Source of the DNA: Ramlibacter albus
GTDB taxonomy: Bacteria > Pseudomonadota > Gammaproteobacteria > Burkholderiales > Burkholderiaceae_C
Length of the DNA stretch: 64,000 nucleotides
Direction of reading: 5' to 3'
NCBI RefSeq assembly: GCF_014297445.1
Contig: NZ_JACORU010000001.1
Coordinates: 992,001 to 1,056,000 of the forward strand
Under the pieces are notes generated by a model that did no database searches, had not been told where the DNA came from, and worked only from the letters and a program-made list of their open reading frames with translations. A program made the position numbers and the translations under genes. Below are positions 2,369 to 64,000 of this stretch, in pieces. Each line of letters starts with the position of its first letter. Position 1 is the first letter of the stretch.

Positions 2369-2908
2369 ATGGAAACGCTGAACCCCTATGCGCCGCCCGG
2401 CGCGAAAGTCGAGGACGTGGCCGCCGTGCAGCACGAGGTGCAGCCCGTGCGCGTGTTTTCCTCGAAGGGCCGCATCGGGCGCGTGCGGTACCTCGCGTAC
2501 CTCACCGCCGCGTACTTCCTGGTGACCATCGGCGCCTTCGTCCTCGCGTTCGTCGCGACGACGGCCAGGTTGCAGACGGCGGCCGGGCTCGCACCGGTGG
2601 TCGTGCTGCTCGTCTATGGCGTCTTCACCGTCCTCAAGACGATCCAGCGCAGCCACGACATGGATTGGTCGGGCTGGTCCGCGCTGCTGGCGCTCATCCC
2701 GTTCGTGGGGCTGATCTGGCTCGTCAAGGCCGGCACCGAAGGCAGCAACCGCTTCGGCGCGCCGCCGCCGCCGAACACGCTGGGCGTGAAGATCCTCGCG
2801 TGGTGCTTCCCGGCGATCTTCCTCATCGGCATGCTGGCCGCGATCGCGATTCCGGCGTACCAGCACTACACGGTGCGGGCGAAGGCGGCGGCGCAGCGCT
2901 CGAAGTGA
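2369..2908 (+). CDS. DUF805 membrane protein with pilin-like C-terminus
   Basis: Small inner-membrane protein of 179 residues. The DUF805 core shows GRIGRVRYLAYL (about residues 34-45), several membrane segments, RSHDMDWSGW and the KAGTEGSNRFG motif typical of the YhaH/YhaI family. The start is supported by GGAGGAGAG just upstream. The last 29 residues (about 151-179) contain IGMLAAIAIPAYQHYTVRAK, which closely resembles the N-terminal helix of mature type IV pilins after Glu5, but sits at the C-terminus and has no prepilin peptidase site. The function of DUF805 proteins is unknown. The base composition matches the host, unlike the gene that follows. Confidence 0.85.
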   Translation: METLNPYAPPGAKVEDVAAVQHEVQPVRVFSSKGRIGRVRYLAYLTAAYFLVTIGAFVLAFVATTARLQTAAGLAPVVVLLVYGVFTVLKTIQRSHDMDWSGWSALLALIPFVGLIWLVKAGTEGSNRFGAPPPPNTLGVKILAWCFPAIFLIGMLAAIAIPAYQHYTVRAKAAAQRSK

Positions 2909-3087
2909 GAAGCTCGTGTGAGCCGTCGCCCAGAGTATGAGGAGGGCTTTTATACGAAGCGTACTTTTATGACGAGAGAGAAAGGGGAGGACGGCGGGTT
3001 AGAGTAGTGACAGTAGGGACAGTAAGCCACCGGATTGGATTCGGGCGACCTTTCCGATAAGCTTAAAAAGATCAGAGGAGGAGCGAT
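2909..3087 (+). promoter_or_regulatory. Leader of the dCTP deaminase gene; possible AvcI-like RNA
   Basis: This 179-nt AT-richer gap precedes the deaminase gene. It holds a TACG-AAG-CGTA palindrome (2953-2963), two GACAGTA copies nine bases apart (3009-3015 and 3018-3024), a 12-codon ORF starting at 2970, and a strong ribosome binding site GAGGAGGAG just before ATG 3088. In Vibrio cholerae an inhibitory small RNA, AvcI, is encoded directly upstream of avcD. A counterpart here is only positional inference; no sequence match can be claimed. Confidence 0.35.
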
Positions 3088-4716
3088 ATGTCCGCAGTAT
3101 TGCACGCAGTACCGGGTGGTTCGTCGAGCAAGAAGAGCAACGATGCCCTGCTCGAAAAGTTCGACAGTCGTCAATCAGGTGAACTGATCATCGGTTTGGC
3201 GGGCCCAATGGGTTGCGGGATCGGAACCATAGTAGACGGTCTTCGAGATCGCCTTCGTGAGCGAGGGTATACGGACGTCGTTCACATCAAGTTGAGCAAA
3301 TTCCTGGAAGACTCGTTGGCGAACAAGCTCGTGAGTGAGTGGGGCGACGCAGATGCTTCGCGAAGATTCGTTCGATATCGACGGCTGCAAGAAGCAGGCA
3401 AAGAGCTTCGTAGGAAATCAAAGAACCCGGCAATTCTGGCGGAATATGCAGCACAAGAAATTGCCGTAGATCGCCGGAGACGTCAACGTCAGAGCTCCCA
3501 GACCGGGCAAGCAATCCCAGCCCCGAATTCCCCTCTCGTACCTGGTCGAATCGCATACCTCATTGACCAAGTAAAGCGCCCCGAAGAAGTTCGCCTTCTG
3601 CGGGCTATCTATCGGAATCTTTTTTACCTGCTGGGTGTCACAAGGATCAACGATCACAGGAAGGATCAACTGGAGACGGAGCAAGTCAGGTCCGACGAAA
3701 CCCAGCGGTTGATCGACATCGACCGACTGGAAGCCGGGGACGGCGGGCAACAACTCGATAAGACGCTGCATCTGGCCGACTACTTCATTCGGAACGATGC
3801 GACGACCGTTGATGAAAAGCGGTTGAAACTTAATCGTTTCTTGGACTTGGTCCACGGCGACAAGAGCACGACACCGACAGATGCCGAGCACGGCATGTAT
3901 GCAGCTTATGCAGCGAGCCTCCGGTCTGCGTGCCTTTCGCGTCAAGTCGGTGCGAGCATCTCGTCAGCTACCGGGGAAGTATTGGCGACGGGATGCAACG
4001 ACGTACCTAAGGCAACCGGAGGGCTCTATTCGGCTTCGTTCAAGGGTCACGACAAGCGATGCGTTCACATGGATGGTCAGCAGTGCTTCAACGACCTTTA
4101 CAAGCGAAAGCTGCAAACCGAAATTGGTGAGTTGGTCGATAAGGCCCTTGAGAAGGCTGGCAAAGGAACGTGGTCCTTACCACAAGACGACCGCGCCGAA
4201 CTCCTCACGAGGATCTATGACAACACTCGATTGAAGGACCTCATAGAGTTCTCGCGATCCGTGCATGCCGAGATGGATGCGATCGTATCGCTCGCTCGCT
4301 TAGGCGGTGCTGGTCTGCACGGCGCAACCTTGTACACGACAACTTATCCGTGTCACAACTGCGCGCGACACATTGTGGCTGCGGGAATCATGAAAGTCTT
4401 CTATATCGAGCCATACGAAAAGAGCCTCGCCAAGGACCTGCACAAGGATGCCATAGCGTTTGAAGTCGAAGAGACCAAGGAGGGCGAACCTAGCCGCGTC
4501 GAGTTCCTGCACTACGAAGGCGTAGCTCCGCGTCAGTTCCATAGCGTCTTTCGAGCAGCGTCGCGCAAGGACTCCGATGGAAAGTACATCCCCATCCGGC
4601 CCATGGAGGCAGACAAAGTCTTGCCCGAGTATCTCGACAACTACCAAGACTTCGAAACAAAAGCGGTCGAGCATCTGAATGAAGAGATTGAGCGGCTCAG
4701 ACCGGCCGCGAATTGA
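3088..4716 (+). CDS. avcD: Anti-phage dCTP deaminase (AvcD/DCD family)
   Basis: Two-domain anti-phage deoxycytidylate deaminase of 542 residues, the usual length for AvcD-type defence proteins (about 530). The N-terminal half is a P-loop kinase-like domain whose loop reads GLAGPMGCGIGT (residues 36-47) and lacks the usual Walker Lys. The C-terminal half is a zinc deaminase with HAEMDAI (His393 as ligand, Glu395 as proton shuttle) and PCHNC (Cys422 and Cys425 as ligands). Known members deaminate dCTP/dCMP after phage shut-off of transcription, starving phage DNA synthesis. The gene sits in lower-GC DNA: hand counts of two 60-base lines give 57-58% GC against 70% in a line of the adjacent gap gene, suggesting transfer. 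A strong RBS supports the start. A small ORF follows after 53 nt. Confidence 0.9.
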   Translation: MSAVLHAVPGGSSSKKSNDALLEKFDSRQSGELIIGLAGPMGCGIGTIVDGLRDRLRERGYTDVVHIKLSKFLEDSLANKLVSEWGDADASRRFVRYRRLQEAGKELRRKSKNPAILAEYAAQEIAVDRRRRQRQSSQTGQAIPAPNSPLVPGRIAYLIDQVKRPEEVRLLRAIYRNLFYLLGVTRINDHRKDQLETEQVRSDETQRLIDIDRLEAGDGGQQLDKTLHLADYFIRNDATTVDEKRLKLNRFLDLVHGDKSTTPTDAEHGMYAAYAASLRSACLSRQVGASISSATGEVLATGCNDVPKATGGLYSASFKGHDKRCVHMDGQQCFNDLYKRKLQTEIGELVDKALEKAGKGTWSLPQDDRAELLTRIYDNTRLKDLIEFSRSVHAEMDAIVSLARLGGAGLHGATLYTTTYPCHNCARHIVAAGIMKVFYIEPYEKSLAKDLHKDAIAFEVEETKEGEPSRVEFLHYEGVAPRQFHSVFRAASRKDSDGKYIPIRPMEADKVLPEYLDNYQDFETKAVEHLNEEIERLRPAAN

Positions 4717-4769
4717 CAGATAATCGCTACGAACTCAGAATGAGCCATGGCTAACTGGAAGGAGCATCC

Positions 4770-4985
4770 ATGCCGCGACGTCCTCCAGCCCCTCCCCCTC
4801 AGCTGCCTTTAAATTTCGACGCTGCCTCATCGGAGGCGAACTCGGAGCGTGACCTGCTGCAGGCCGGCAGGGTCTTTCAGCTTCCGGTCAAAGGCATACG
4901 AGAAAAGCGGGAGCGTAGCTCCGATCGAGGGCTGGACTCGGTCCTCGATGAGGTTCTTTCAAACGCTAAGCGTTTGAACTGGTAA
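4770..4985 (+). CDS. Small unknown protein linked to the dCTP deaminase
   Basis: I do not recognise this 71-residue protein. It begins with a proline-rich stretch (PRRPPAPPPQLPLNF), has a very charged middle (GIREKRERSSDRG) and ends in a predicted short helix (LDSVLDEVLSNAKRLNW). No membrane segment, signal peptide or cysteine is present. The start has a good RBS (AAGGAG, about 4759-4764). It lies 53 nt after the deaminase on the same strand, shares its lower GC, and ends at the shared terminator, so the two probably form one mobile unit. A regulator, antitoxin or accessory defence factor is possible, but this rests on context alone. Confidence 0.6.
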   Translation: MPRRPPAPPPQLPLNFDAASSEANSERDLLQAGRVFQLPVKGIREKRERSSDRGLDSVLDEVLSNAKRLNW

Positions 4986-5013
4986 AAAAAAGCGCCTGAC
5001 GGCGCTTTTTTTT
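4984..5013. terminator. Bidirectional intrinsic terminator
   Basis: A perfect hairpin with a GGCGC/GCGCC core, TGAC loop, eight A before it and eight T after it. It can terminate the deaminase operon on the plus strand and gap on the minus strand, whose stop is 5 bases away. It also marks the right border of the lower-GC segment. Confidence 0.9.
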
Positions 5014-5017
5014 GCGC

Positions 5018-8072
<3,055 letters not shown>

Positions 8073-9257: not shown

Positions 9258-10655
9258 ATGAACACCACCGTCCCCACCTCGCTCTATGCCCAGCGGCGCG
9301 CAAAAGTCGCCGCTGCGCTCGGCCCCAACGGTATCGCCGTGGTGCCGACGGCGCCGGAGCGCCAGCGCAACCGCGACAGCGACTTCCAGTTCCGGCACGA
9401 CAGCTACTTCTATTACCTCACCGGGTTCACCGAGCCGAACGCGTGCCTGGTGCTCACCGGCGACGGCAAGAGCACGCTGTTCTGCCAGCCCAAGGACCTC
9501 GAACGCGAGATCTGGGACGGCTACCGCCTCGGGCCGGATGCGGCTGTCGGCGCGCTCGCGGTGGACGCGGCCCATGCCGTCGGCGAGCTGGACACGCAGA
9601 TGCCCAAGCTGCTGGAGAACAGGGACGCGGTCTGGTACCCGTTCGCGATCCATCCGGGCCTGGAGCAGCGCGTGGCCGGCTGGCTGAACCAGGTGCGCGC
9701 GCGCGTGCGCTACGGCGCGCTGTGCCCCGAGCAGCAGCGTGACCTGTGCGCGGTGCTCGACGAGATGCGCCTCTTCAAGGACGCCCACGAGCAGGACATC
9801 ATGCGCCGCGCGGCCGCGATCAGCGCCCGCGCTCACGTCCGTGCCATGCAGTACTGCGCAAAGGCGCTGCGCGAAGGCCGCGACGTGCGCGAGTACCACC
9901 TCGACGCGGAGCTGATGCACGAGTTCCGCGCGGGCGGCTCGCAGTACCCGGCGTACAGCTCCATCGTCGCCGCGGGCGCGAACGCCTGCGTGCTGCACTA
10001 TCGCGCCGACGTGGCGCCGGTGAAGTCCGGTGACCTCGTGCTGATCGACGCCGGTTGCGAGCTGGACGGCTACGCGAGCGACATCACGCGCACCTTCCCG
10101 GCCAACGGCAAGTTCACCGGGCCGCAGCGCGAGCTCTACGACATCGTGCTCGCCTCGCAGGAAGCCGCCGTGGCCGCGACGAAGCCGGGCGCGCGCTTCA
10201 CCGACCCGCACGACGCCGCGGTGAAGGTGCTCGCGCAGGGCATGCTCGACACCGGGCTGCTGGACAAGAACAAGGTGGGCACGCTGCAGGACGTGATCGA
10301 CAACCGCAGCTACTTCCAGTTCTACATGCACCGCACCGGCCACTGGCTGGGCATGGACGTGCACGACTGCGGCAGCTACGTCGAGCCCGCGGAAGTGGGC
10401 GAAGTGAGCGAGCGCAAGGACCCGCTGTCGGGCGAGGTGATCAAGAACCGCCCGAGCCGCATCCTGCAGCCCGGCATGGTGCTGACGATCGAGCCCGGCA
10501 TCTACGTGCGCCCGGGCGACGGCGTGCCGGAGCGCTTCCACCATATCGGCATCCGTATCGAGGACGATGCGATCGTCACGGCCGGTGGTTGCGAGCTGAT
10601 CACGCGTGGCGTGCCGGTGAAAGCGGACGAGATCGAAGCCCTCATGAAGGGCTGA
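9258..10655 (+). CDS. pepP: Xaa-Pro aminopeptidase
   Basis: Aminopeptidase P of 465 residues with the AMP N-terminal domain (about 1-135) and a pita-bread metallopeptidase domain. The metal ligands are visible in DAGCELDGYASDITRTFP (two Asp), the His of the HRTGHWLGMDVHD region, TIEPGIY (Glu) and a final Glu in GIRIEDD. It releases N-terminal residues preceding proline in the cytosol. There is no clear Shine-Dalgarno; instead CACAAT ends six bases before the ATG, compatible with a leaderless transcript. The next gene starts 2 nt after the stop. Confidence 0.95.
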   Translation: MNTTVPTSLYAQRRAKVAAALGPNGIAVVPTAPERQRNRDSDFQFRHDSYFYYLTGFTEPNACLVLTGDGKSTLFCQPKDLEREIWDGYRLGPDAAVGALAVDAAHAVGELDTQMPKLLENRDAVWYPFAIHPGLEQRVAGWLNQVRARVRYGALCPEQQRDLCAVLDEMRLFKDAHEQDIMRRAAAISARAHVRAMQYCAKALREGRDVREYHLDAELMHEFRAGGSQYPAYSSIVAAGANACVLHYRADVAPVKSGDLVLIDAGCELDGYASDITRTFPANGKFTGPQRELYDIVLASQEAAVAATKPGARFTDPHDAAVKVLAQGMLDTGLLDKNKVGTLQDVIDNRSYFQFYMHRTGHWLGMDVHDCGSYVEPAEVGEVSERKDPLSGEVIKNRPSRILQPGMVLTIEPGIYVRPGDGVPERFHHIGIRIEDDAIVTAGGCELITRGVPVKADEIEALMKG

Positions 10656-60406: not shown

Positions 60407-61822
60407 ATGAGCGAGGGGCAACTGAACAGCCTGGCAGCCACAGCCAGCTTGGGCGCAGGCGACAGCCTGTGGCAGGCGTGCGTGGACCAGCTGGCCCAGG
60501 AACTGCCGGAACAGCAGTTCAACACGTGGATCAAGCCGCTGGCAGCCACGGTCTCCGACGATTTCTCCAAGGTCACGCTGCACGTGGCCAACCGGTTCAA
60601 GCTCGATTGGGTGCGGGCCCAGTACGCCGGCCGCATCGCCGGCCTGCTGGAAAAGCTGTACGGTCAGCCCGTGCAGCTTGAGTTAGCCATCACTCCCCGA
60701 GAAAACCTCGTCAAGACTTACGCCACGCCGGCCGCCGTCACGCCCATTGCGGCCGCGGCAGAGCCCGTGGAGCCCGACGAAGACCCCGCCGCGGGCGGCT
60801 TCAAGACCCGGCTGAACACCGCTTTGACCTTCGACACCCTCGTCGAAGGCACTGCCAACCGCATGGCGCGGGCGGCCGCGATGCACGTGGCCGGAACGCC
60901 CGGCCAGCTGTACAACCCGTTGTTCATCTACGGCGGCGTGGGCCTGGGCAAGACCCATTTGATGCACGCGGTGGGCAACAAGCTGCTGGCCGACAAGCCC
61001 GGCAGCAAGGTGCTTTACATCCACGCCGAGCAGTTCGTGAGCGACGTGGTGAAGGCCTACCAGCGCAAGACCTTCGATGAATTCAAGGACAAGTACCACA
61101 GCCTGGACCTCCTGTTGATAGATGACGTGCAGTTCTTCGCCAACAAGGACCGCACCCAGGAAGAATTCTTCAACGCGTTCGAGGCGCTGTTAACGAAAAA
61201 GTCTCACATCGTGATGACCTCCGACACCTACCCCAAGGGCCTGACGGACATCCACGAGCGGCTGGTTTCGCGCTTCGACAGCGGCCTGACGGTGGCCATC
61301 GAGCCGCCCGAGCTGGAGATGCGCGTGGCCATCCTCATCAACAAGGCGCGCAGCGAAAACGCCGAGATGCCGGAGGAAGTGGCCTTCTTCGTCGCCAAAA
61401 ACGTGCGAAGCAACGTGCGTGAGCTCGAGGGCGCGCTGAGGAAGATCCTGGCGTACAGCCGCTTCAACCAGAAGGAAATCTCCATCGCGCTCGCGCGCGA
61501 GGCGCTGCGCGACCTGCTGTCGATCCAGAACCGGCAGATCAGCGTGGAGAACATCCAGAAGACCGTGGCCGACTACTACAAGATCAAGGTGGCGGACATG
61601 TACAGCAAGAAGCGGCCGGCCAGCATCGCGCGGCCGCGGCAGATTGCCATGTACCTGGCCAAGGAGCTGACGCAGAAAAGCCTGCCCGAAATCGGCGAGC
61701 TCTTCGGCGGCCGCGACCACACCACCGTGCTGCACGCGGTGCGCAAGATCGCGCAGGAGCGGCAGAACGTGACCGAACTGAACCAGCAACTTCACGTGCT
61801 GGAGCAGACCTTGAAGGGCTAG
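60407..61822 (+). CDS. dnaA: Chromosomal replication initiator DnaA
   Basis: DnaA of 471 residues with all four domains: N-terminal helicase-loading domain ([22 protein letters not shown]), variable linker, AAA+ domain (Walker [12 protein letters not shown], Walker [11 protein letters not shown]) and DNA-binding domain IV ([16 protein letters not shown]). Initiates replication at oriC. It leads dnaA-dnaN-gyrB. Confidence 0.98.
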
Positions 61823-61832
61823 CGCCCGGCTA

Positions 61833-61854
61833 GGCCAAAATGCTGGTTTTGGCC
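61833..61854. repeat. Inverted repeat in the dnaA-dnaN spacer
   Basis: GGCCAAAA-TGCTGG-TTTTGGCC, a perfect 8-bp inverted repeat 10 nt after the dnaA stop. It may form a transcript hairpin that tunes read-through to dnaN; there is no T-run, so it is not a classic terminator. Confidence 0.6.
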
Positions 61855-61893
61855 CCAGAAGGGCCGCAAAACGAACAATAGGAAGAGGAAGAC

Positions 61894-63003
61894 ATGATCG
61901 TCTTGAAGGCAACGCAGGAAAAGCTGCTGTCGGTGCTGCAGTCCGTGGCCGGCATCGTGGAAAAGCGGCACACCCTGCCCATCCTGGCGAACGTGCTGGT
62001 GCGCAAGACCGGTGGCGCGGTGCAGTTCACCACGAGCGACCTGGAAATCCAGATCCGCACGAACGTGGAGATGGACGGCGACAGCGGCAACTACACCACC
62101 ACCGTGGGCGCGCGCAAACTCATCGACATCCTGCGCACCATGCCCAGCGACCAGACGGTGAGCATCGAGAGCAGCCAGAACAAGTTGATCCTCAAGGGCG
62201 GCAAGAGCAAGTTCACGCTGCAGACGCTGCCGGCCGAGGACTTCCCGCTCGTGCAGGAGGCCCCGAGCTTCGGCCCCGCCTTCAAGGTGCCGCAGAAGGC
62301 GCTGAAGGACCTGCTGAACCAGGTGAGCTTCGCGATGGCGGTGCACGACATCCGCTATTACTTGAACGGCATCCTCTTCGTGGCCGAAGGCAAGCAGCTT
62401 TCGCTCGTGGCCACCGACGGCCACCGCTTGGCTTTTGCTTCGGCGACCCTAGATGTAGAGGTGCCGCGGCAAGAGGTGATCCTGCCGCGCAAGACCGTGC
62501 TGGAGCTGCAGCGCCTGCTCAGCGACAAGGCCGAAGGCCAGATCGAGATGCAGTTCGCGAACAACCAGGCCAAGTTCGCCTTCGACGGCATGGAGTTCGT
62601 GACCAAGCTGGTGGAAGGCAAGTTCCCCGACTACAACCGCGTCATCCCCAAGAACCACAAGAACGCCGTCACCCTGGGCCGCGCGCCGCTGCTGGCCAGC
62701 CTGCAGCGCACCGCCATCCTGACGAGCGAGAAGTTCAAGGGCGTGCGCCTGAACCTGGAGAACGGCACCCTGCGCGTGGCGAGCAACAACGCCGAGCAGG
62801 AAGAAGCCGTCGACGAGCTGGACATCGACTATGCCGGCGACGACATCGAGATCGGCTTCAACGTCACGTACTTGATCGATGCCCTGGCCAACATGGACCA
62901 GGAAATGGTGAAGATGGAGCTGGCGGACGCCAACAGCTCGGCACTGATCACGATTCCCGAAAACACGACCTTCAAGTACGTCGTGATGCCGATGCGGATT
63001 TGA
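61894..63003 (+). CDS. dnaN: DNA polymerase III beta clamp
   Basis: Sliding clamp of 369 residues, three clamp domains ([18 protein letters not shown] start; [16 protein letters not shown]-terminal [10 protein letters not shown]). Tethers polymerase III to DNA. AGGAAG precedes the ATG. Downstream of dnaA by 71 nt, likely one transcript. Confidence 0.98.
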
Positions 63004-63013
63004 GAAAGTTTCA

Positions 63014-64000
<987 letters not shown>

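What the first reader, a model, noticed from the sequence alone, without database searches (positions are those of the whole stretch)
2909..5013. Low-GC island with an anti-phage dCTP deaminase
The only clearly foreign-looking stretch in the window carries a full-length AvcD/DCD-type nucleotide-depletion defence gene between housekeeping genes, ending exactly at a strong bidirectional terminator. Zinc and catalytic residues are intact, while the N-terminal P-loop lacks the usual Lys. The domain assignment is seen; the defence role follows from characterised AvcD/DCD proteins.
Basis: partly seen in the sequence, partly recalled or inferred. Interest (0 to 1): 0.8.

Follow-up and report, generated by a model that had tools for sequence, protein, structure and literature searches.

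The report
Phage-defence deaminase with hidden partner gene
A small acquired DNA segment in this bacterium carries a known type of anti-phage enzyme that destroys a DNA building block, and next to it an overlooked tiny gene whose relatives accompany many such enzymes and may control them or tie them to the DNA-copying machinery.

Summary
Window 2909-5013 is the lowest-GC stretch (0.55). It encodes a 542-aa protein above NCBIfam's curated 'anti-phage dCTP deaminase' cut-off. The missing P-loop Lys is normal for the family. No empty site was found: in 52 fetched gap loci of relatives no DUF805 lies nearby, and the module sits at an apparent rearrangement junction. In one congener a different deaminase occupies the same side of gap, flanked by a duplicated gap 3' end.

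I assigned adjacent partner ORFs to 50 of 55 relatives by eye; partner type follows the deaminase tree. In the window's clade the partner ends in [A/S]xx[L/I]xW; gammaproteobacterial relatives carry it upstream, where the published AvcI 'antitoxin RNA' lies. In 3' partners of three clades an N-terminal segment fits the published beta-clamp-binding consensus (here QLPLNF). A hold-out set repeated this for clade B (6/11 loci against 13/2185 background ORFs), but two partner classes lack it.

Best reading: a two-gene deaminase module with a protein regulator. Regulation is inferred; clamp binding is a testable hypothesis. No experiment was done.

The parts
2909..3087 (+). leader between DUF805 and the deaminase, start of the low-GC stretch; no Trp-tailed ORF; Shine-Dalgarno GAGGAGGAG at 3075-3083
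   Evidence: RNA fold z = +0.38, no unusual structure; no Rfam match there at E <= 1
3088..4716 (+). anti-phage dCTP/dCMP deaminase (DCD/AvcD family), 542 aa
   Evidence: NF041025 461.6 bits, cut-off 400; PADLOC dCTPase 5.9e-166; AF2 pLDDT 84.9, pTM 0.85; Foldseek: dCMP deaminases and nucleotide kinases
3193..3228 (+). degenerate P-loop GLAGPMGCGIGT (residues 36-47) of the kinase-like N-terminal domain
   Evidence: G42 invariant in 40 relatives; no GxxxxGK[ST] in the 44 recognised loops
4264..4362 (+). zinc and catalytic residues: H393-A394-E395 (4264-4272) and P421-C422-H-N-C425 (4348-4362)
   Evidence: invariant columns
4757..4764 (+). Shine-Dalgarno GGAAGGAG of the microprotein gene
   Evidence: sequence; SD-like sites at 30 of 41 microORF starts against 430 of 4628 background ATGs
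4770..4985 (+). 71-aa partner microprotein, unknown to the searched family libraries
   Evidence: no Pfam, PADLOC or PHROG match at E <= 1, one sub-cut-off NCBIfam hit; similar ORF beside the 77%-identical deaminase of L009; in the genus only G000 of 60 has a strong match, best other E = 0.011
4800..4817 (+). QLPLNF (residues 11-16), fits the published beta-clamp-binding consensus
   Evidence: consensus from PMC13254535 passages; statistics
4956..4982 (+). C-terminal tail LSNAKRLNW with terminal Trp, at the end of a predicted helix (residues 52-69)
   Evidence: tail motif 11/116 adjacent ORFs against 1/1355 background; AF2 model
4984..5013 (.). bidirectional intrinsic terminator shared with the convergent gap gene
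   Evidence: sequence; hairpin
2369..2908 (+). left flank: DUF805 gene, last gene of a MoxR-DUF58-DUF805 block
   Evidence: Pfam DUF805 7.5e-17; DNA similarity with five relatives ends near its 3' end
5018..6016 (-). right flank: gap (glyceraldehyde-3-phosphate dehydrogenase, named from the translation), core gene
   Evidence: 57 of 60 genus genomes

Best explanation
The low-GC segment is a horizontally acquired two-gene phage-defence module. Gene 1 is a DCD/AvcD enzyme: a kinase-like N-terminal domain with a degenerate P-loop plus a zinc deaminase that removes dCTP/dCMP on infection. Gene 2 is a small, largely disordered partner protein, probably made from the same transcript; its C-terminal helix with terminal Trp most likely docks on the deaminase and holds it inactive, a protein counterpart of AvcI. 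Its N-terminal QLPLNF segment may bind the replication sliding clamp (DnaN), so that the deaminase is held at, or released from, replication forks when a phage disturbs them. Shown by computation: the gene pair, coding conservation among relatives, clade-specific motifs, the 5'/3' difference in position. Inferred: enzymatic activity, co-transcription, physical contact, inhibition (about 0.5) and clamp binding (about 0.35).
For: Deaminase identity. Partner ORF assigned by eye at 50 of 55 discovery loci; dN/dS 0.11-0.29 in 6 of 11 pairs of relatives; SD-like sites 30 of 41. Partner type follows a tree built from the deaminases alone: 7 groups, 6 changes (least possible), shuffled mean 32.2. Tail [AS]xx[LI]xW: 11/116 against 1/1355, Fisher 5e-12. 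Published clamp consensus: discovery 7/19 (shuffles mean 0.2, maximum 3 in 2000). Hold-out: class B 6/11 loci against 13/2185 background ORFs, Fisher 8e-11; upstream Trp tail in 6 of 8 A_up loci and 0 of 48 others. Long partners: strict consensus 3 of 8, P 0.004. The microprotein model has an extended N-terminus and one confident C-terminal helix.
Against: The clamp motif is absent from class C partners (0/15 tested; 0/24 hold-out loci) and from the 5' partners (0/11), so it cannot be needed by all DCDs. No partner was seen at 5 of 55 discovery loci, nor at hold-out loci L183 (the window's own class), L214 and many of class C (Trp motif in 9 of 26, one probably by chance). By motif I recognise a partner at about half of the hold-out loci with enough flank. 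For the window's own microprotein the only pair (with L009) is saturated (pN/pS 0.54), so its selection rests on relatives. Groups were sorted by eye before the tree; some counted sequences are near-copies. In Vibrio the inhibitor is published as an RNA (PMC10511110). No experiment shows activity, inhibition or binding.
Confidence: 0.6

Rival explanations
1. Type III toxin-antitoxin: the functional partner is an RNA, as published for AvcI, and the adjacent ORFs are passengers in that RNA.
For: AvcI of V. parahaemolyticus is published as a non-coding RNA (about 280 nt in a figure legend) that binds and inhibits AvcD and is lost on transcription shut-off (PMC10511110, abstract, first part and passages).
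Against: The leader 2909-3087 folds no better than its shuffles (z +0.38) and matches no RNA family. dN/dS of related ORFs is well below 1 where measurable. The same peptide tail occurs 5' in gammaproteobacteria and 3' here, which fits a relocated protein better than a relocated RNA. An unstructured RNA is not excluded.
Confidence: 0.2
2. The partner is not an inhibitor but a targeting or sensing subunit: it brings the deaminase to replication forks through the clamp, or is needed to switch it on.
For: The clamp-like motif occurs in three partner classes of different size, including partners of 172-216 aa; an extended N-terminus with a C-terminal helix suits a tether.
Against: Absent from class C and from the 5' partners. 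Published AvcI inhibits AvcD.
Confidence: 0.3
3. Single-gene deaminase: the small ORFs are chance or unrelated neighbours.
For: DefenseFinder and PADLOC treat dCTP deaminase as one gene (recalled); a minority of discovery loci and many class C hold-out loci show no partner that I recognise.
Against: Motif statistics with hold-out repeat, dN/dS, ribosome-binding sites and close tracking of the deaminase tree.
Confidence: 0.05

Closest known systems
AvcID (V. cholerae, V. parahaemolyticus, E. coli ETEC)
   Same: Same deaminase family; two-part locus; in most gammaproteobacterial relatives examined a W-tailed ORF occupies the AvcI position
   Different: Here the partner is downstream and carries a QLxLxF motif, and the upstream leader shows no RNA structure. 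The ETEC p58 locus (L165) has an upstream ORF without the Trp tail. The two Vibrio loci themselves were not fetched.
DCD / dCTP deaminase systems (Tal et al. 2022, not read; PADLOC PDLC02373; NCBIfam NF041025)
   Same: Profile match above the curated cut-off
   Different: Filed as a single-gene system (recalled); the window and many relatives have a second gene.
SocAB clamp-binding toxin system (recalled, Caulobacter)
   Same: A toxin-antitoxin system that involves the sliding clamp
   Different: There the toxin binds the clamp; here the small partner carries the motif. No sequence relation was tested.

Membership tests
Anti-phage dCTP deaminase (NF041025 / DCD / AvcD) | Profile match above curated cut-off | tested here: met
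   461.6 against 400 bits; PADLOC 5.9e-166, residues 19-536
Anti-phage dCTP deaminase (NF041025 / DCD / AvcD) | HAE and PCxxC zinc/catalytic residues | tested here: met
   H393-A394-E395, P421-C422-x-x-C425, invariant among 40 proteins
Anti-phage dCTP deaminase (NF041025 / DCD / AvcD) | Kinase-like N-terminal domain joined to a dCMP-deaminase-like domain | tested here: met
   AF2 model and Foldseek: kinase folds 3lw7, 4i1u, 3n2i; deaminases 1vq2, 2hvw
Anti-phage dCTP deaminase (NF041025 / DCD / AvcD) | Depletes dCTP/dCMP and protects against phage | not testable with these tools
   needs experiment
AvcID type III toxin-antitoxin | Partner ORF at the AvcI position, immediately upstream, as in gammaproteobacterial relatives | tested here: not met
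   no W-tailed ORF upstream; the partner ORF is downstream
AvcID type III toxin-antitoxin | Antitoxin is an RNA | tested here: inconclusive
   leader RNA z +0.38, no Rfam match; an unstructured RNA is not excluded
Beta-clamp-binding proteins | Q-phi-x-[LM]-x-[FL] motif in a flexible region | tested here: met
   QLPLNF, residues 11-16, no helix or strand there in the AF2 model
Beta-clamp-binding proteins | Physical binding to DnaN | not testable with these tools

The most novel reading that the evidence does not exclude
Anti-phage dCTP deaminases are ancestrally two-protein systems. A small 3'-encoded partner couples the nucleotide-depleting enzyme to the replication sliding clamp and keeps it off, and the 5' AvcI locus of gammaproteobacteria is a relocated, clamp-motif-free form of the same partner gene and not, or not only, an RNA antitoxin.
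Probability: 0.3. Interest if true: 0.88.

Novelty: new variant of a known kind. Interest (0 to 1): 0.68.

Why it matters
How these deaminases are held off in healthy cells and switched on by phages is, as far as I found, described only for the RNA-controlled AvcID. A conserved protein partner beside many relatives would change the count of parts in this defence system, put the RNA-only view of AvcI to a direct test, and, if the clamp motif is real, link a nucleotide-depleting defence to the replication machinery that phages must take over or bypass; I know of no such link in print.

Tried and rejected
Empty-site test: 52 gap loci of other genus members (of 56 with a gap match; four lie at contig ends and were not fetched) and five loci holding the whole DUF805 block; no DUF805-gap adjacency was seen, so a clean insertion cannot be shown. 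Copy of the gap 3' end elsewhere in G000 as an att site: none beyond matches of 17-35 bases; the gap 3' 165 nt of G000 is not unusual against 24 relatives of equal gap length. AvcI-like RNA upstream: no support. Plasmid or phage origin of the window's own copy: the plasmid and phage records hold only relatives below 60% identity; the microprotein alone finds nothing significant in plasmids, nothing in the PDB better than E 0.8, and nothing convincing elsewhere in the genus. A viral-contig scan with the class B deaminase of L114 gave one weak fragment, unused. Pfam on three long partners: no family at a meaningful score; PADLOC on two of them: none. Claims I dropped: that every DCD has a partner, and that the clamp motif is general (class C and 5' partners lack it). 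The loose motif Q[LMI]x[LFI]x[FLVIM] (16/19) and the wide form used for the long partners (7/8) were written after seeing the data; I rely on the published consensus and the hold-out set. Rows dropped before counts: 4 of 14 phylum-search loci (own genome, a genome already used, two partial matches); L239 and L240 (no or weak match); L009 and L080 (broken deaminases) from the tree; L156-L158 (partial matches) not examined; L170 and L181 not in the clamp-motif count. Near-copies inside counts: L118/L119, L141/L142, L164/L168, L179/L180/L181; hold-out L185 = L245 and L186 = L187 (same upstream ORF), L188-L190 and L195 nearly the same deaminase as discovery rows, L216 as L170.
Full report
What was checked. 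The window lies at 992001-1056000 of contig C1 of a 6.15-Mb genome. The stretch 2909-5013 is its lowest-GC part: 0.55 for the deaminase gene, 0.71 upstream and 0.67 downstream. ORF 3088-4716 passes the curated cut-off of NF041025 'anti-phage dCTP deaminase' (461.6 against 400 bits) and matches PADLOC dCTPase over residues 19-536. By sequence the PDB gives only relatives of the deaminase half; an AlphaFold2 model (pLDDT 84.9, pTM 0.85) matches dCMP deaminases for the C-terminal domain and adenylate, thymidylate and dephospho-CoA kinases for the N-terminal domain (Foldseek). The catalytic residues are intact and invariant among 40 relatives. The P-loop lacks the usual Lys, but none of the 44 recognised loops among 51 listed members reads GxxxxGK[ST] (six gammaproteobacterial ones have Lys one place later), and a published double mutant used as inactive control has S49K and E376A (PMC10511110; abstract, first part of the text and passages read).

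Is it foreign? In the genus, 6 of 60 genomes have any hit at E <= 0.001 and 3 of 60 a (nearly) full-length family member: this genome, G029 (43%, on a contig without gap) and G003 (40%). In larger draws, own genome included: family 19 of 399 (E <= 1e-20), order 12 of 399 and class 4 of 369 (E <= 1e-30). A gap gene is found in 57 of 60 genus genomes. I fetched 52 gap loci of other members: in none do MoxR, DUF58 or DUF805 homologues appear in the fetched stretch (several stretches are short because contigs end). The DUF58 gene of the left flank is found in 7 of 60 genomes; DNA similarity with five relatives ends near the 3' end of DUF805. In three of them one conserved 2.4-kb block follows DUF805 (after about 550 bp in G001), 80-86% identical among them; in the window's genome this block lies on contig C34. 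So the defence module sits at what looks like a rearrangement junction, and I found no simple empty site.

A recurrent insertion place. A 600-bp block below 0.60 GC within 2.4 kb downstream of gap occurs in 3 of 53 loci: the window's genome, G003 and G027. In G003 a different deaminase (34-40% identical, broken by one in-frame TGA) sits on the same side of gap in the same orientation, with its own small ORF and a terminator-like palindrome, and on its far side lies a 163-bp, 92%-identical copy of the gap 3' end. G027 holds a low-GC island with a recombinase-like ORF (by eye) and a protein that matches the C-terminal part of TmtA/HmaA defence models (best E 2e-9). No such gap copy exists in the window's genome. 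Integration at the gap 3' end is therefore indicated for G003 and only suggested here.

The missed gene. Between the deaminase stop and the terminator lies ORF 4770-4985: 71 aa, with GGAAGGAG 5 nt before its ATG, ending in the terminator's A-run. It has no Pfam, PADLOC or PHROG match at E <= 1 and one sub-cut-off NCBIfam hit (13.6 bits, cut-off 175). A promoter-like TTGACA-17-CAGAAT lies just before it (4713-4741), but 0.7 such sites are expected by chance. The nearest deaminase found, in an uncultured betaproteobacterium (L009, 77% identical over the C-terminal part, interrupted by a transposase-like ORF), carries a 65-70-aa ORF at the same place with the same beginning and end: QLTFDF ... 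VLINARKLKW against QLPLNF ... VLSNAKRLNW.

Partner ORFs in the family. At 55 discovery loci I listed ORFs next to the deaminase and sorted them by eye into seven groups before building a tree: A_down (5, the window among them), A_up (8, gammaproteobacterial records and one faecal record, ORF upstream), A' (4, E. coli, upstream, tails such as IVFD and IILD), B (14, downstream), C (16, downstream, often a start overlapping the deaminase stop, often W[PS]xW-like; L170 is a weak member), long (3, 172-201 aa, downstream), none seen (5). A tree from the deaminases alone (53 rows; quick IQ-TREE, some long branches; L009 and L080 left out) needs 6 changes for the 7 groups, the least possible (shuffled mean 32.2), although C alone is not one side of a branch. 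A_down and A_up/A' form one clade (SH-aLRT 98). Since clades B, C and long carry the partner downstream, the downstream place is probably ancestral and the 5' place of AvcID-type loci derived (inference; the tree is midpoint-rooted for drawing only).

Are they coding? In 11 pairs dN/dS was 0.11-0.29 in 6 (one of them with only three changes), saturated in 4 (pN/pS 0.47-0.54; among them the window's own pair with L009), and uninformative in 1 (a single change). SD-like sites precede 30 of 41 microORF starts against 430 of 4628 background ATGs (some starts were picked with context in view).

The tail. ORFs adjacent to deaminases end in Trp in 13 of 116 cases, all at class A loci, against 38 of 1355 background ORFs; the fuller tail [AS]xx[LI]xW is found in 11 of 116 against 1 of 1355 (Fisher 5e-12; some of the 13 are near-copies). 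It occurs upstream in gammaproteobacteria and downstream here: the same peptide end at two places. The four A' loci lack it.

The N-terminal motif. 16 of 19 A_down and B microproteins carry Q[LMI]x[LFI]x[FLVIM] (shuffles: mean 0.48, maximum 4 in 2000); this pattern was written after seeing the data. It resembles the clamp-binding consensus Q-phi-x-[LM]-[FL] or Q-phi-x-[LM]-x-[FL] stated in PMC13254535 (passages read) and QLxLF in PMC4549789 (passages read). With the published form 7 of 19 match (shuffles mean 0.2, maximum 3), the window's QLPLNF among them, two near-copy pairs included. Of nine long-class loci eight have a 172-216-aa partner (L214 shows none); of these eight, three fit the strict form (QLSLF, QLNLPF, QALLF; P 0.004) and seven a wider form chosen afterwards (QGMLF, QGLLF, QPLLF, QYALSL added). 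Class C (0 of 15 tested) and 5' partners (0 of 11 tested) have none.

Hold-out test. 58 viral-contig loci and 10 phylum-level loci were assigned to classes by their best-matching reference deaminase (67 of 68 had a match). Counting loci with at least 300 nt downstream and ORFs of 40-110 aa starting at -62 to +90: class B 11 of 11 have such an ORF, and 6 of 11 fit the published clamp consensus in the first 30 residues, against 13 of 2185 background ORFs (Fisher 8e-11); their deaminases are 39-69% identical to the nearest discovery member. All other classes: 0 of 53 (long partners exceed the size limit here). Class A_up: 6 of 8 loci with at least 300 nt upstream have an upstream ORF with the full tail (4 distinct ORFs), L194 and L244 do not; 0 of 48 in other classes. 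A': 3 of 5 have the full-length upstream ORF, L188 a shortened one. Class A_down: L182 has, 156 nt after the stop and thus outside the preset limit, an ORF with both QLDLDF and ARKLSW; L183 shows none. Class C: 9 of 26 show the Trp motif, L216 probably by chance. Long: 5 of 6. So by motif I recognise a partner at about half of the hold-out loci with enough flank.

How it probably works. The deaminase chemistry and the defence are taken from characterised homologues: AvcD deaminates dCTP and dCMP, and its inhibitor is lost when the phage stops host transcription (PMC10511110; AvcI lies upstream of avcD, PMC9455884 passage). In the window the leader shows no RNA structure (z +0.38) and no Rfam family, while a partner ORF is present downstream. 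The model of the microprotein is not globular (pTM 0.26) but has a helix at residues 52-69 (mean pLDDT 91 over residues 61-70's neighbourhood block) close to the Trp tail, with the motif in an extended N-terminus. I read this as two hands: the tail on the deaminase, the motif possibly on the clamp. Inhibition is my first choice by analogy with AvcI; a targeting or sensing role is the main rival. The host's dnaN lies in the same window (61894-63003, named from the translation), so the binding test can be made with the native pair.

Novelty. Full-text searches for AvcD/AvcI, dCTP deaminase with phage, defence, antitoxin, small ORF or sliding clamp (listings and starts of abstracts seen) and passages of PMC10511110, PMC12409362 and PMC9455884 showed no mention of a protein partner. 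The two founding papers (Hsueh 2022, Tal 2022) are not held and were not read; I recall, without a call, that a coding function of AvcI was considered and rejected for Vibrio. The claim of novelty is limited accordingly.

Noticed in passing
L080 (G003:C29:266000-277500), 7827-7989 and 10035-10194: A 163-bp, 92%-identical duplicate of the gap 3' end flanks a different, TGA-interrupted deaminase module of about 2.2 kb in which I saw no integrase; the gap 3' end looks like an integration site.
   Followed up: partly
L088 (G027:C15:248800-260300), the 5 kb next to gap: Low-GC island beside gap with a recombinase-like ORF (by eye) and a protein matching the C-terminal part of TmtA/HmaA defence models (best E 2e-9).
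   Followed up: partly
L138, L169, L173, L219, L221, L228, L246, L248 downstream of the deaminase: A partner class of 172-216 aa; three members scanned have no convincing Pfam family; most have a QxxLF-like N-terminal segment, QLSLF in L173.
   Followed up: partly
L009 324-1389: Transposase-like ORFs (IS630-like by eye) split the closest deaminase relative while the downstream microprotein ORF stays open.
   Followed up: no
window 4713-4741: Promoter-like TTGACA-17-CAGAAT just before the microprotein gene, as might give extra partner; 0.7 expected by chance in the scanned region.
   Followed up: no
window 60407-64000: dnaA-dnaN-gyrB (named from the translations), about 57 kb from the module; explains the second GC dip and supplies the host clamp for a binding test.
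   Followed up: no
L179-L181 (E. coli chromosomes, between prophage-like genes or a tyrosine recombinase and yjjG): Deaminase with a 61-aa upstream ORF that is annotated in only one of the three records (L180), though it is open in all three.
   Followed up: no
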